Shown here in pieces: positions 1 through 44,101 of a stretch of 64,000 nucleotides of DNA. Under the pieces are notes generated by a model, which was not told where the DNA came from, ran no database searches, and saw nothing but the letters and a program-made list of their open reading frames with translations. Made by a program: the position numbers and the translations under genes. Numbering within the stretch: the stretch's first letter is position 1; each line of letters opens with the position of its first letter. This DNA comes from Pristionchus mayeri (taxonomy: Eukaryota > Nematoda > Chromadorea > Rhabditida > Neodiplogasteridae): assembly GCA_036245805.1 (NCBI GenBank), contig BTRK01000006.1, positions 46,114,257-46,178,256 of the forward strand, read 5' to 3'.

Positions 1-186
1 GGCTGGACATGATAACAACATCATTTACACTGACTTATATATCGGGATAACTGAAAGAAGAAGAGAAAGACTCCGAGCCCATCTCTATCCATGTTACACA
101 CATAGAGAGTGATATGAGAGATCAACGATCAATCTTTACATGATAACAACAGAATCTTGATACATTTATCATAGAACGTAATTGTT

Positions 187-285
187 GGCTCCGCCTAAGC
201 AGAGCCTTTCCAAAATTTCGGTATAAAGGCCACGTCATTCAACGAGCCAGATCGAATCTTTACCTCAAACTTGGGTAATTAAACC
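187..285 (-). ncRNA. SL1: SL1 spliced leader RNA, unit 1
   Basis: Donor RNA for trans-splicing: its first 22 nt are placed on the 5' ends of many nematode mRNAs. On the minus strand the gene starts at 285 with GGTTTAATTACCC and matches the nematode SL1 leader exactly. The leader ends in GAG followed by the splice donor GTAAAG. Downstream lie a stem, the Sm-protein binding site AATTTTGG (about 208-217) and a terminal hairpin GGCTC..GAGCC (187-206). Length about 99 nt, as in the family. The 3' end is set at the base of the last hairpin and may extend a few bases. The promoter lies at higher coordinates; an octamer-like ATGCAAAC (304-311) is near -25, but I could not identify a PSE with confidence. 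Confidence 0.97.
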
Positions 286-610
286 GAAGATGATTTTGGC
301 GCCATGCAAACACCGCATTGTTGCCCTCTGGACACCCTTGGTACCACTATTTCCCCTTACCCAAATCAATTGATATTCGGTGAGATGACACCCAGCGAAG
401 CATAGATGGCACACAAAAAAATTCACAAAGATCCGAGGTGGTCTACCTAAGTAAAAATACTTGCGAAAATTTCGAAAAATGAGTGAAAATTTTGAAGCTA
501 GAGCCTCGCTTTTGCGCTCAAATCGTTCCCCCTATGCCCAAATGCTCCCAAAAATGACCTTAACTCATACCGTCAACTTTGAACTGTGAGCTTTCGGAAG
601 TTACATAACT

Positions 611-785
611 TCGCGGCCTAGCCGCGAGACCCGCAGCCTTGCAGCCATAGTAGCGGCCTAGCCGCTACAGTAGCGGCCTAGCCGCCATGGTAGCGGCCTA
701 GCCGCCATAGTAGCGGCCTAGCCGCCAGAGCGGCGGCCTAGCCGCCAGAGCGGCGGCCTAGCCGCCAGAGCTGCAGCCTTGCAGC
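611..785. repeat. Cluster of short GC-rich palindromes between SL1 and U6 (unit 1)
   Basis: Seven copies of GCGGCCTAGCCGC or a close variant, each able to fold on itself, spaced by 6-8 bases and flanked on both sides by the related palindrome GCAGCCTTGCAGC. Some loop sequences differ while the stems keep pairing (CGCGGCCTAGCCGCG, AGCGGCCTAGCCGCT). The cluster recurs in every complete unit with 4 to 7 copies (7 in units 1, 3, 4, 5, 6, 8, 11 and 23; 6 in 2, 9 and 12-22; 5 in 7 and 10; 4 in 24). It lies in the spacer shared by the divergent SL1 and U6 promoters. Function unknown. Confidence 0.9.
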
Positions 786-950
786 TATAGTGGCAGATCA
801 TCAACACACCTGACGGATGATCCGTCTACCATTCAACGGCACGCATCTTACAGTATTCTTGCACTGGCAATGTGTGAGCAGAACTTCTGTCATTCACTAC
901 CTGAGCACTCTCTTAAATCCGGCGCTACTAGCGTGCATGCATAGTGGCCC

Positions 951-960
951 TAATATAAGC
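951..960 (+). promoter_or_regulatory. TATA element of U6 (unit 1)
   Basis: TAATATAAGC lies 25-31 bases upstream of the U6 start, the position expected for the TATA box that directs Pol III to U6-type promoters. The same sequence occurs before U6 in every complete unit. The PSE expected near -60 was not identified. Confidence 0.7.
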
Positions 961-981
961 AGGTGACAATACTCATCCCTC

Positions 982-1086
982 GTTCATTCCAAATGAACAT
1001 ATACTAAAATTGGAACAATACAGAGAAGATTAGCATGGCCCCTGCGCAAGGATGACACGCAAATTCGTGAAGCGTTCCAAATTTTT
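982..1086 (+). ncRNA. U6: U6 spliceosomal snRNA, unit 1
   Basis: Catalytic core RNA of the spliceosome, needed for both cis- and trans-splicing. The 5' stem-loop GTTCATT-CCA-AATGAAC is perfect (7 bp). It is followed by the metazoan U6 body: ATATACTAAAATTGGAACA, the ACAGAGA box that contacts 5' splice sites, the AGC triad, and the internal stem-loop region CGCAAGGATGACACGCAAA. The gene ends in TTCCAAATTTTT, a Pol III terminator. Compared with C. elegans U6 the body looks identical; only the 5' stem-loop differs. It is transcribed away from SL1 and towards 5S. Confidence 0.97.
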
Positions 1087-1122
1087 GCACTGTTTGATCA
1101 CTCGCGACTAATTCGACGTCTT

Positions 1123-1164
1123 GCCGGAATATTCGGCAGTAGCCGGAATATTCGGCAGTTGCCG
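1123..1164. repeat. GCCGGAATATTCGGCAGT repeat between U6 and 5S 3' ends (unit 1)
   Basis: Two 19-bp copies with a GAATATTC palindromic core, followed by a partial third. Copy number per unit is one in units 5-8, 10 and 11, two in 1-4 and 23, three in 9, 12-22 and 24. It sits in the short interval where the two Pol III genes converge. No function is evident. Confidence 0.85.
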
Positions 1165-1263
1165 AACTCCTCGTCATTGTTATGAAAAAAAGCTGCAAAA
1201 CATCATCTAATGCAGTTTAAAGATCAGAAGAATCCATAAGAGAGATCTGCAAAAAAGCAAAAT

Positions 1264-41053: not shown

Positions 41054-41230
41054 GCACTGTTTGATCACTCGCGACTAATTCGACGTCTTGCCGGAATATT
41101 CGGCAGTAGCCGGAATATTCGGCAGTTGCCGAACTCCTCGTCATTGTTATGAAAAAAAGCTGCAAAACATCATCTAATGCAGTTTAAAGATCAGAAGAAT
41201 CCATAAGAGAGATCTGCAAAAAAGCAAAAT

Positions 41231-41348
41231 GCTTACAACACCCAGGATTCCCAAGCCGTCTCCGATCCAAGTACTAACTGGGCCCACCGTTGCTTAACTT
41301 GACAGATCGGACGGGATGTCGTGTTCTCAACGGGGTATGGTCGTAAGC
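41231..41348 (-). rRNA. 5S: 5S rRNA, unit 23
   Basis: C at position 2, as unit 1. Confidence 0.97.
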
Positions 41349-41946
41349 GAGGGCACATAGTGAACGAATCGGAGTATATTTTGGGGAAAAACGCGCTCAT
41401 GTGGAGAAAGGAAAGGTGAATTCCGGGTCAATTCTTCATCCTTCTCGAGATCAAAGAGCATCTCAAGCATGTAAGCAGGTTTCGTAAACCTGGCGAAACA
41501 TACTAGGAAAATAGAAGACACATTTTTTGAAATGCGTTTTGAAAAACTATGTCTTCTATGTTATAGAAGACTGTTCATTTCCGAGATCCGGAGGCTATGT
41601 CTTCTACGAAATAGAAGACTCATTTTTTGAAATGAATTTTGAGAAACTGTGTCTTCTACTTTTGAGCCTGGCGAAACATACTAGGAAAATAGAAGACATA
41701 TTTTTCAAAATCTGTTTTTAAAAAATTTTTCTTGAAAGTGATCTGATAGATCAAAGATCAGGCTGGACATAATAACAACATCATTTACACTGACTTATAT
41801 ATCGGGATAACTGAAAGAAGAAGAGAAAGACTCCGAGCCCATCTCTATCCATGTTACTCACATAGAGAGTGATATGAGAGATCAACGATCAATCTTTACA
41901 TGATAACAACAGAATCTTGATACATTTATCATAGAACGTAATTGTT

Positions 41947-42045
41947 GGCTCCGCCTAAGCAGAGCCTTTCCAAAATTTCGGTATAAAGGCCACGTCATTC
42001 AACGAGCCAGATCGAATCTTTACCTCAAACTTGGGTAATTAAACC
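41947..42045 (-). ncRNA. SL1: SL1 RNA, unit 24
   Basis: RNA unchanged; G at -13. The unit has several private changes in its spacers. Confidence 0.97.
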
Positions 42046-42721
42046 GAAGATGATTTTGGCGCCATGCAAACACCGCATTGTTGCCCTCTGGACACCCTTG
42101 GTACCACTATTTCCCCTTACCCAAATCAATTGATATTCGGTGAGATGACACCCAGCGAAGCATAGATGGCACACAAAAAAATTCACAAAGATCCGAGGTG
42201 GTCTACCTAAGTAAAAATACTTGCGAAAATTTCGAAAAATGAGTGAAAATTTTGAAGCTAGAGCCTCGCTTTTGCGCTCAAATCGTTCCCCCTATGCCCA
42301 AATGCTCCCAAAAATGACCTTCTCATACCGACAACTTTGAACTGTGAGCTTTCGGAAGTTACATAACTTCGCGGCCTAGCCGCGAGACCCGCAGCCTTGC
42401 AGCCATGGTAGCGGCCTAGCCGCCATAGTAGCGGCCTAGCCGCCAGAGCGGCGGCCTAGCCGCCAGAGCTGCAGCCTTGCAGCTATAGTGGCAGATCATC
42501 AACACACCTGCCGGATGATCCGTCCCATAGTGGTAGATCATCAACACACCTGACGGATGATCCGTCTACCATTCAACGGCACGCATCTTACAGTATTCTT
42601 GCACTGGCAATGTGTGAGCAGAACTTCTGTCATTCACTACCTGAGTACTCTCTTAAATCCGGCGCTACTAGCGTGCATGCATAGTGGCCCTAATATAAGC
42701 AGGTGACAATACTCATCCCTC

Positions 42722-42826
42722 GTTCATTCCAAATGAACATATACTAAAATTGGAACAATACAGAGAAGATTAGCATGGCCCCTGCGCAAGGATGACACGC
42801 AAATTCGTGAAGCGTTCCAAATTTTT
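42722..42826 (+). ncRNA. U6: U6 snRNA, unit 24
   Basis: Body unchanged; only four palindromes upstream. Last U6 of the array. Confidence 0.97.
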
Positions 42827-43022
42827 GCACTGTTTGATCACTCGCGACTAATTCGACGTCTTGCCGGAATATTCGGCAGTAGCCGGAATATTCGGCAGTT
42901 GCCGGAATATTCGGCAGTTGCCGAACTCCTCGTCATTGTTATGAAAAAAAGCTGCAAAACATCATCTAATGCAGTTTAAAGATCAGAAGAATCCATAAGA
43001 GAGATCTGCAAAAAAGCAAAAT

Positions 43023-43140
43023 GCTTACAACACCCAGGATTCCCAAGCCGTCTCCGATCCAAGTACTAACTGGGCCCACCGTTGCTTAACTTGACAGATC
43101 GGACGGGATGTCGTGTTCTCAACGGGGTATGGTCGTAAGC
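43023..43140 (-). rRNA. 5S: 5S rRNA, unit 24
   Basis: Gene as unit 1. The upstream flank has GCGAAGGC for GCGAGGGC and one extra T in the T-run near the TATA-like element. Last 5S of the array. Confidence 0.96.
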
Positions 43141-43740
43141 GAAGGCACATAGTGAACGAATCGGAGTATATTTTTGGGGAAAAACGCGCTCATGTGGAGA
43201 AAGGAAAGGTGAAATCCGGGTCAATTCTTCATCCTTCTCGAGATCAAAGAGCATCTCAAGCATGTAAGCAGGTTTCGTAAACCTGGCGAAACATACTAGG
43301 AAAATAGAAGACACATTTTTTGAAATGCGTTTTGAAAAACTATGTCTTCTATGTTATAGAAGACTGTTCATTTCCGAGATCCGGAGGCTATGTCTTCTAC
43401 GAAATAGAAGACTCATTTTTTGAAATGAATTTTGAGAAACTGTGTCTTCTACTTTTGAGCCTGGCGAAACATACTAGGAAAATAGAAGACATATTTTTCA
43501 AAAACCTGTTTTTAAAAAATTTTTCTTGAAAGTGATCTGATAGATCAAAGATCAGGCTGGACATGATAACAACATCATTTACACTGACTTATATATCGGG
43601 ATAACTGAAAGAAGAAGAGAAAGACTCCGAGCCCATCTCTATCCATGTTACACACATAGAGAGTGATATGAGAGATCAACGATCAATCTTTACATGATAA
43701 CAACAGAATCTTGATACATTTATCATAGAACGTAATTGTT

Positions 43741-43839
43741 GGCTCCGCCTAAGCAAAGCCTTTCCAAAATTTCGGTATAAAGGCCACGTCATTCAACGAG
43801 CCAGATCGAATCTTTACCTCAAACTTGGGTAATTAAACC
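43741..43839 (-). ncRNA. SL1: SL1 RNA, truncated unit 25
   Basis: Leader, donor and Sm site intact. The last hairpin has one change (plus strand AAGCAAAGCC for AAGCAGAGCC) that turns a C-G pair into U-G. About 260 bp of upstream sequence survive before the array ends, so the core promoter is probably present. Confidence 0.93.
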
Positions 43840-44101
43840 GAAGATGATTTTGGCGCCATGCAAACACCGCATTGTTGCCCTCTGGACACCCTTGGTACCA
43901 CTATTTCCCCTTACCCAAATCAATTGATATTCGGTGAGATGACACCCAGCGAAGCATAGATGGCACACAAAAAAATTCACAAAGATCCGAGGTGGTCTAC
44001 CTAAGTAAAAATACATGCGAAAATTTCGAAAAATGAGTGAAAATTTTGAAGCTAGAGCCTCGCTTTTGCGCTCAAATCGTTCCCCCTATGCCCAAATGCT
44101 C

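What the first reader, a model, noticed from the sequence alone, without database searches (positions are those of the whole stretch)
1..44101. 5S rRNA, SL1 RNA and U6 snRNA locked into one tandem repeat
Each complete unit carries one intact copy of all three genes: 24 5S, 24 U6 and 25 SL1. The 5S-SL1 pairing is known from Caenorhabditis. I know of no described nematode unit that adds U6, though I cannot search. SL1 and U6 act on each other in trans-splicing and 5S is made by Pol III like U6, so one array sets the dosage of translation and trans-splicing parts together. SL1 (Pol II) and U6 (Pol III) share a divergent spacer, and U6 and 5S converge, so polymerase crosstalk is possible.
Basis: partly seen in the sequence, partly recalled or inferred. 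Interest (0 to 1): 0.88.

Follow-up and report, generated by a model that had tools for sequence, protein, structure and literature searches.

The report
Nematode 5S–SL1–U6 composite gene array
A roundworm genome carries about 140 tandem copies of a unit that joins the genes for 5S ribosomal RNA, the SL1 spliced leader and the U6 splicing RNA, and it is one of several mixed arrays in that genome that between them hold genes for all five main splicing RNAs.

Summary
The window holds 24 U6, 24 5S and 25 SL1 genes in one tandem unit of about 1.8 kb. It is only the tail of the array, which spans about 255 kb of C6 and holds about 140 of the 160 exact U6 cores in the genome (104 placed one by one, the rest by subtraction). 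All 24 window U6 copies have the same promoter: PSE-like element at -63 and ATATAA at -29. SL1 has its best PSE-like match at -55, close to the -56 of a U4 gene without TATA. The copies look built to be transcribed and the array looks like the main U6 locus; transcription was not tested.

The dosage-locking idea is not supported: SL1 also has a neighbouring SL1-only array of 226 copies, and 5S has at least five other arrays. The unit is part of a wider pattern: 5S–U4, U1–U5–U2, 5S–SL1 with a U6 remnant, SL1–U6 without 5S. SL–5S–U2 units are in print for a protist; the ten paper searches run showed no nematode 5S–SL1–U6 unit in the listings and passages seen. New variant of a known kind.

The parts
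1..44101 (.). Tail of the 5S-SL1-U6 tandem array, period 1774-1834 bp (24 full units plus part units at both ends); continues upstream of the window
   Evidence: upstream extent
185..285 (-). SL1 RNA gene, first of 25. The other SL1 exons start on the - strand at 2078, 3854, 5647, 7440, 9254, 11068, 12842, 14656, 16490, 18264, 20078, 21912, 23746, 25580, 27414, 29248, 31082, 32916, 34750, 36584, 38418, 40252, 42045 and 43839
   Evidence: exact exon; RF00198 41.9 bits, E 4e-5 but below its gathering score of 75 (first 4.2 kb searched); folds with a 3' hairpin
210..217 (-). Sm-site-like AATTTTGG of SL1 unit 1
   Evidence: sequence printed; motif recalled, similar to the one used for C. elegans in PMC7986045 (passages)
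323..340 (-). PSE-like element of SL1 unit 1, at -55 to -38
   Evidence: best of all positions in the 110 bases upstream, score 6.6; best match falls at -55 in 5 of 5 SL promoters examined
286..981 (.). Divergent SL1-U6 spacer; holds the 20-bp GCGGCCTAGCCGCC subrepeats at 613-770
919..936 (+). PSE-like element of U6 unit 1 (-63 to -46)
   Evidence: -70 to -1 identical in 24 of 24 window U6 copies; score 19.1 at -63 with the site itself left out of the model
953..958 (+). TATA element ATATAA of U6 unit 1 (-29)
982..1086 (+). U6 snRNA gene, first of 24, ending in TTTTT. The others start at 2758, 4551, 6344, 8179, 9993, 11767, 13581, 15375, 17189, 19003, 20797, 22631, 24465, 26299, 28133, 29967, 31801, 33635, 35469, 37303, 39137, 40949 and 42722
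   Evidence: 113.6 bits each; one single sequence in all 24; 0 of 105 columns variable in 42 aligned units
1087..1262 (.). Convergent U6-5S spacer; holds 19-bp GCCGGAATATTCGGC repeats at 1123-1164
1263..1381 (-). 5S rRNA gene, first of 24. The others start on the - strand at 3157, 4950, 6743, 8559, 10373, 12147, 13961, 15793, 17569, 19383, 21215, 23049, 24883, 26717, 28551, 30385, 32219, 34053, 35887, 37721, 39555, 41348 and 43140
   Evidence: 102.2-106.2 bits
1382..1977 (.). 5S-SL1 spacer with 48-64 bp imperfect inverted repeats (1541-1766)

Best explanation
This is most likely a working composite ribosomal and splicing-RNA array in a nematode. Each unit carries three separately promoted genes: SL1 (Pol II, PSE-like element at -55), U6 (Pol III, PSE-like element at -63 plus TATA at -29) and 5S (Pol III, internal promoter, inferred). 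The array is the largest U6 locus by far. It probably arose when a U6 gene became linked to an SL1 unit (an SL1-U6 locus without 5S survives on C5) and this was combined with a 5S-SL1 unit, then amplified and kept uniform by unequal exchange. It is one of several related arrays that share spacer sequence and have gained, lost or swapped 5S, SL1, U4 and U6. The linkage is best read as a by-product of array turnover that gives U6 high copy number and uniformity, not as a device for fixed stoichiometry. Shown: anatomy, promoter elements, copy numbers, related units. Inferred: transcription, direction and order of events, benefit.
For: Unit anatomy. U6 cores: 160 exact in the genome, 20 listed outside the array, 80 listed in it upstream of the window, 24 in the window, 36 unlisted that fit the 65-kb gap between. 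Promoters: -70 to -1 identical in 24 of 24 window U6; with each site left out of the model in turn, window U6 scores 19.1 at -63 and five of 11 dispersed U6 loci 18.3-26.8 at -63/-64 with a TATA at -29 to -30, the other six at most 4.2 and no TATA. SL genes have their best match at -55 in 5 of 5 cases; U4 17.5 at -56 without TATA. Related units: L010 (C5:47.91 Mb) has SL1+U6 and no 5S, in blocks 78-94% identical to the window unit and 92-96% to the SL1-only unit. The C3:4.59 Mb unit read has 5S, SL1 and an exact 20-nt U6 piece in the same place and orientation. The C4:17.2 Mb unit read is 5S-U4. A spacer block of the window unit recurs in the four other array units read and in L010 (73-254 bp, 76-95% identity), not in the other 10 dispersed U6 loci or the 20-kb flank.
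Against: No RNA data were available. U6 invariance (0 of 105 columns) is no stronger than that of the neighbouring U6-5S spacer (1 of 195), so uniformity alone does not show selection. The SL1 PSE score is modest (6.6), lower in the SL1-only and C3:4.59 Mb units (2.8, -1.7). Five promoter-bearing U6 loci exist outside the array and 9 of 20 dispersed loci were not read. The C3 U6 remnant is short and RF00026 does not see it (E up to 0.1). The SL1 exon of L010 has one changed base, so that locus may be a relic. Eleven successive units are identical over 1834 bp: very recent amplification or an assembly effect. Only one unit of each other 5S array sampled was read, and the order of gain and loss was not tested with a tree or outgroup. 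Whether the shared spacer block is a dispersed genomic repeat was not searched genome-wide.
Confidence: 0.75

Rival explanations
1. The unit is selected to lock the dosage of 5S, SL1 and U6 together.
For: 1:1:1 ratio in 24 of 24 window units; SL1 and U6 both act in trans-splicing (established knowledge).
Against: Genome-wide counts are far from 1:1:1: 621 5S-like, 389 SL1-like (each up to 3 mismatches), 160 exact U6 cores. A separate 226-copy SL1-only array lies next to it, and 5S-only and 5S-U4 arrays exist. U4, the pairing partner of U6, sits in a different array.
Confidence: 0.1
2. The U6 copies are passengers carried by array homogenisation and largely silent; dispersed U6 genes supply the cell.
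For: 5 of 11 dispersed U6 loci read have the same PSE+TATA promoter, four of them with higher scores than the array copies (19.9-26.8 against 19.1). In the C3:4.59 Mb unit read, U6 has decayed while 5S and SL1 remain.
Against: 24 of 24 window U6 have an intact body ending in TTTTT, PSE and TATA; 1 of 110 upstream columns varies in 42 units. 6 of 11 dispersed U6 loci lack TATA and score at most 4.2 for the PSE.
Confidence: 0.12
3. Assembly artefact: separate arrays were joined by the assembler.
For: Eleven identical consecutive units; N blocks of 500 and 40,000 bases nearby.
Against: 26 distinct unit sequences among 42 aligned, of different lengths, in the same gene order. The SL1-U6 locus on C5 and the 5S-SL1-U6-remnant unit on C3 show the same linkages independently.
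Confidence: 0.03

Closest known systems
5S-SL1 tandem cluster of Caenorhabditis elegans (PMC8961926, PMC12803116, PMC11822377: passages read)
   Same: Tandem units with one 5S and one SL1 gene, over 100 copies, mixed Pol II and Pol III genes
   Different: About 1 kb units, only 5S and SL1 described; there 5S and SL1 lie in opposite orientations, here on one strand; one cluster described there, several arrays here
5S-SL repeat of Nippostrongylus brasiliensis (PMC5765664, passages)
   Same: 5S alternating with the SL RNA gene
   Different: 535-bp unit; no U6 mentioned in the passages
SL RNA-5S-U2 unit of Diplonema papillatum (PMC10161547, passages)
   Same: Three ncRNA genes in one tandem unit: SL RNA, 5S and a spliceosomal snRNA; its authors call it exceptional
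   Different: U2 instead of U6; a diplonemid protist, not an animal
5S closely linked to U1, U2 and U5 in Solea senegalensis, U2-U5 linkage in fishes, U1-U2 / U2-U5 / U4-U5 linkages in Drosophila (as told in PMC3464664, passages)
   Same: 5S and/or snRNA genes linked with each other; the U1-U5-U2 arrays here resemble these
   Different: No SL RNA and no U6 in the linkages told
Crustacean with three different tandem units containing 5S, one with U1 (Pelliccia et al. 2001: title only, in the reference list of PMC3464664)
   Same: Several 5S arrays with different partner genes in one genome
   Different: Only the title was seen; it names U1, not SL1 or U6
U5/U6 genomic repeat of Taenia solium (Jean-Joseph et al. 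2003: title only, in the reference list of PMC10161547)
   Same: U6 in a repeat with another snRNA
   Different: Flatworm; title names no 5S or SL RNA
Dinoflagellate and copepod SL RNA-5S arrays (PMC6616646 and PMC4664967, passages; Zhang et al. 2009 itself not held)
   Same: SL genes alone in tandem, or mixed with 5S
   Different: Passages name 5S only. I have an uncertain recollection, confirmed by no call, that Zhang et al. 2009 also report U6 in such arrays of one species; to be checked before any priority claim

Membership tests
Nematode 5S-SL1 tandem array | 5S and SL1 genes alternating in tandem units | tested here: met
Nematode 5S-SL1 tandem array | Exact SL1 exon followed by a GT donor and an Sm-like site | tested here: met
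   (25 of 25 exons exact); GGTAAAG and AATTTTGG seen in the two copies printed; SL1 columns 1 of 101 variable in 42 units
Nematode 5S-SL1 tandem array | Only 5S and SL1 in the unit, in opposite orientations (C. elegans form) | tested here: not met
   U6 present; 5S and SL1 on the same strand
Nematode 5S-SL1 tandem array | Score over the Rfam gathering cut-off for SL1 (RF00198) | tested here: not met
   41.9 bits against 75; E 4e-5, so a diverged body with an exact exon
Functional U6 snRNA gene | Conserved U6 body ending in a T-run | tested here: met
Functional U6 snRNA gene | Pol III snRNA promoter: PSE plus TATA at fixed spacing | tested here: met
   shared with five dispersed U6 loci, absent from six; the element is defined from these genes, no factor binding was tested
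Functional U6 snRNA gene | Transcribed | not testable with these tools
   no RNA or ChIP data
Three-gene SL-5S-snRNA unit (Diplonema type) | SL RNA, 5S and a spliceosomal snRNA in one repeated unit | tested here: met
   compared with PMC10161547 passages
Three-gene SL-5S-snRNA unit (Diplonema type) | The snRNA is U2 | tested here: not met
   it is U6; U2 lies mostly with U1 and U5 elsewhere

The most novel reading that the evidence does not exclude
In this nematode the main copies of all five spliceosomal snRNAs, SL1 and 5S live in a network of tandem arrays ([5S-SL1-U6], [5S-U4], [U1-U5-U2], [SL1], [5S], and decayed forms), at least some of which share spacer sequence and have swapped genes, so that splicing-RNA genes behave as exchangeable cassettes under array-type concerted evolution. 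The 5S-SL1-U6 unit would be the member in which a trans-splicing substrate RNA and its catalytic partner U6 are homogenised together, in one locus using two polymerases and one shared PSE-binding factor.
Probability: 0.5. Interest if true: 0.65.

Novelty: new variant of a known kind. Interest (0 to 1): 0.55.

Why it matters
The arrays make a question about multigene families testable inside one genome: whether 5S arrays pick up other small-RNA genes by neutral turnover or by selection. The genome holds related stages side by side: SL1 alone, SL1–U6 without 5S, 5S–SL1–U6, 5S–SL1 with a U6 remnant, and 5S–U4. The array also puts two Pol III genes and one Pol II gene, with related PSE-like elements before SL1 and U6, within 1.8 kb: a natural test bed for how SNAPc-type factors choose the polymerase. 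C. elegans work reports separate Pol II and Pol III foci at its simpler 5S–SL1 cluster (PMC12803116, passages).

Tried and rejected
Dosage locking: rejected as the main reading after genome-wide counts. Assembly artefact: kept at low weight. That this is the only 5S or SL1 locus: rejected. That every array carries 5S: the U1–U5–U2 array at C4:8.2 Mb shows no exact 5S core in the sorted listing; that listing did not reach C5, so there it is open. Promoter absence in six dispersed U6 loci was first judged by eye, then tested with a leave-one-out model.

Relatives: no nematode collection is on hand. An exact SL1 pattern gave 0 in viral contigs and 0 in genome contigs, as expected for virus and prokaryote sets, so conservation in related species is untested. 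One search was a badly guessed pattern with 0 matches and means nothing. One search, a pattern meant to expose further 5S arrays, found 4 single places; one search then found two more arrays. Passages of PMC12787238, PMC7245778, PMC5029490, PMC2770079 and PMC7986045 showed no three-gene unit.
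Full report
1. What is there. Rfam finds 24 U6 genes on the + strand and 24 5S genes on the - strand in the window, at gathering thresholds. The exact SL1 exon occurs 25 times on the - strand, with none in 100 shuffles. The order along the + strand is SL1(-), U6(+), 5S(-), then the next SL1(-). SL1 and U6 diverge over 696 bp; U6 and 5S converge over 176 bp. SL1 scores only 41.9 bits against the Rfam SL1 model, below its gathering score of 75. The exon is exact, it is followed by a GT donor and an AATTTTGG Sm-like site, and the transcript folds with a 3' hairpin.

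2. The whole array. The window is G000:C6:46114257-46178256 of a 290.8-Mb assembly with six contigs of 39.7-57.3 Mb. An exact 63-nt U6 core occurs 160 times in it. Twenty are listed outside the array region, 80 are listed in it upstream of the window, and 24 are in the window. The remaining 36 are not listed one by one; they fit the 65-kb gap between 46049250 and the window at about 1.8 kb each. So about 140 are in the array. It runs from at least C6:45903257, the edge of a 40,000-N block, to 46158357, about 255 kb; the stretch 45943335-46114256 was not read. I read 45 units: 24 in the window and 21 distal. Of the 21 distal ones, 2 are 665-bp SL1-only half-units and 3 have a 5S with one substitution; in the window unit 3 and a group of 12 units have 5S substitutions. 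One further distal unit, only partly held, has no exact U6 core in the list. For alignment I kept 42 of 45, dropping the two half-units and one unit of 1596 bp. Variable columns: U6 0 of 105, the 110 bases before U6 1 of 110, SL1 1 of 101, 5S 5 of 119, SL1–U6 spacer 53 of 588, U6–5S spacer 1 of 195, 5S–SL1 spacer 16 of 596. The genes are uniform, but so is the U6–5S spacer, so uniformity alone does not prove selection. Eleven successive window units (20079-40252) are identical over 1834 bp.

3. Promoters. Before the array U6 there is CCGGCGCTACTAGCGTGC at -63 and ATATAA at -29, and the whole -70 to -1 stretch is identical in 24 of 24 window copies. I tested 11 of the 20 dispersed U6 loci with a model that left out the site being scored. 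Five (L001, L002, L008, L009, L010) score 18.3-26.8 at -63 or -64 and have a TATA at -29 to -30. The window U6 scores 19.1 at -63. The other six have an exact U6 body, score at most 4.2 and have no TATA; the 4.2 (L003) lies at -65, so a worn element there is possible. The U4 gene of the C4 array has the same kind of element at -56 (17.5 with itself left out) and no TATA in the 120 bases examined. For five SL genes (this array, the SL1-only array, the C3:4.59 Mb and C3:42.3 Mb arrays, and L010) the best position in the 110 bases upstream is -55 each time, with scores 6.6, 2.8, -1.7, 11.2 and 5.0. Some of these SL promoters are related to each other, so they are not five independent cases. This is the familiar logic of PSE alone for Pol II and PSE plus TATA for Pol III (established knowledge of snRNA promoters).

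4. The wider pattern. SL1: 389 copies within 3 mismatches of a 40-mer. Of the exact exons, 223 forward and 3 reverse form an SL1-only array, period about 652 bp, at C6:45697884-45862654, with no exact U6 or 5S core. 5S: 621 copies within 3 mismatches of a 54-mer. They lie in this array; in C3:4590424-4604041 (13 copies, period about 1135); in C3:42.32-42.38 Mb (period about 2277); in C4:17177375-17300732 (74 copies with that tail); in C6:44105605 onward (period 439, listing cut off at 44135985); in C1:13992292-14008471 (11 copies); and in single places. By subtraction this array holds at most about 145 5S and about 146 SL1 (assuming one SL1 in each of the 13 C3:4.59 Mb units). One unit each of three other 5S arrays was read. 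The C4 unit is 5S plus an intact U4 (116.9 bits). The C3:4.59 Mb unit is 5S plus SL1 (46.3 bits) plus a 20-nt exact piece of U6 lying where U6 lies here; the Rfam U6 model does not report it. The C3:42.3 Mb unit is 5S, an SL1-like gene with a changed exon (35.1 bits) and a degraded U4 (25.1 bits). U4: 105 copies within 3 mismatches, 72 of them listed in the C4 array. U1, U5 and U2 sit together head to tail in units of about 2015 bp at C4:8.22-8.29 Mb and 1958 bp at C5:37.014-37.036 Mb. These two places take 39 of 42 scored U1, 41 of 47 scored U5 and 38 of 46 scored U2 matches; only the best candidates are scored, so these are samples, not full counts. At C6:44.102-44.106 Mb, U2, U4 and 5S lie side by side.

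5. How the arrays relate. L010 (C5:47.91 Mb) carries SL1 and U6 in the arrangement of the window unit, but no 5S. Blocks of it are 78-94% identical to the window unit and 92-96% identical to the SL1-only unit. Its SL1 exon has one changed base, so it may be a relic. A spacer block beside the SL1–U6 subrepeats of the window unit recurs in the four other array units read (SL1-only, C3:4.59, C3:42.3, C4:17.2) and in L010: 73-254 bp, 76-95% identity, inverted in two of them. It is not in the other ten dispersed U6 loci nor in the 20-kb flank. I could not search the whole genome for it, so it may yet be a dispersed repeat. The U1–U5–U2 arrays were not read, so whether they share it is open.

6. Mechanism. 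The best reading is a working composite array that is the largest U6 locus. It was probably made by linkage of U6 to an SL1 unit and combination with a 5S–SL1 unit, followed by amplification and homogenisation. The anatomy, promoters and copy numbers are shown; transcription and the order of events are inferred. Genome-wide counts contradict a strict dosage lock: the array holds roughly a quarter of 5S and under 40% of SL1, but most exact U6 cores.

7. What is known. C. elegans has a 5S–SL1 cluster of about 1-kb units with the two genes in opposite orientation and Pol II and Pol III foci (PMC12803116, PMC11822377, PMC8961926; passages). N. brasiliensis has a 535-bp 5S–SL unit (PMC5765664, passages). 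Oscheius tipulae has 5S and SL1 unclustered (PMC8022731, passages). Guiliano and Blaxter describe the C. elegans array and variant SL1s in other nematodes (PMC1657053, passages). The nearest three-gene unit is SL RNA–5S–U2 in Diplonema papillatum, which its authors call exceptional (PMC10161547, passages). 5S with U1, U2 and U5 in a sole is told in PMC3464664 (passages). The paper searches gave no report of U6 in a 5S–SL1 unit of a nematode in the listings and passages I saw; I read no paper whole. The library holds open-licence papers only, and I met one key paper that is not in it. I have an uncertain memory of U6 in SL–5S arrays of a dinoflagellate, which no call confirmed.

8. Verdict. The finding is a new variant of a known kind. 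The wider pattern, with genes for all five main snRNAs plus SL1 and 5S in mixed tandem arrays of one nematode, is more interesting than the single unit. That the organism is a nematode rests on the SL1 exon, identical to the C. elegans one printed in PMC7986045, and on the named astacin hits.

Noticed in passing
L031-L050 (G000:C6:45690001-45890000): A separate SL1-only tandem array, 226 exact exons, period about 652 bp, next to the three-gene array and mostly on the other strand
   Followed up: yes
L053 (G000:C4:17178951-17180650) and the C4:17.18-17.30 Mb array: 5S-U4 tandem units; the one read has an intact U4 and a PSE-like element at -56
   Followed up: partly
G000:C4:8.22-8.29 Mb and C5:37.014-37.036 Mb: U1-U5-U2 head-to-tail tandem units, seen as match positions only
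   Followed up: partly
L052 (G000:C3:42327901-42330250): 5S unit with an SL1-like gene whose exon is changed in its first half (GGATTAAAATCCCAAGTTTGAG), keeping an Sm-like site and the best PSE score of the five SL genes examined; plus a degraded U4
   Followed up: partly
G000:C6:44102314-44136014: U2-U4-5S cluster running into a 5S array with a 439-bp period
   Followed up: no
G000:C6:45863257-45903256: Exactly 40,000 N between the SL1-only and the three-gene arrays
   Followed up: no
G000:C5:4.805, C5:9.127 and C6:11.519 Mb: Single U4 matches lying within about 1 kb of a 5S match, like orphan 5S-U4 pairs
   Followed up: no
window 51173-57994: Pao-type LTR retrotransposon frame; the same short reading frames at both ends suggest terminal repeats
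   Followed up: no
window 45427-45678 and 62352-62606: Two similar EGF-like reading frames on either side of the retrotransposon, the second beside an astacin exon (61732-62115); perhaps a duplicated gene pair
   Followed up: no
window 20079-40252 (units 12-22): Eleven consecutive units with identical 1834-bp sequence, sharing a 5S variant at its second base that should still allow a G-U pair
   Followed up: partly
L004-L007 (C3:38.96-38.98 Mb and C4:14.34-14.36 Mb): U6 copies with exact bodies and no promoter, inside duplicated, partly inverted segments shared between chromosomes
   Followed up: partly
window 60649-60720: A tRNA-like gene on the - strand (49.6 bits)
   Followed up: no
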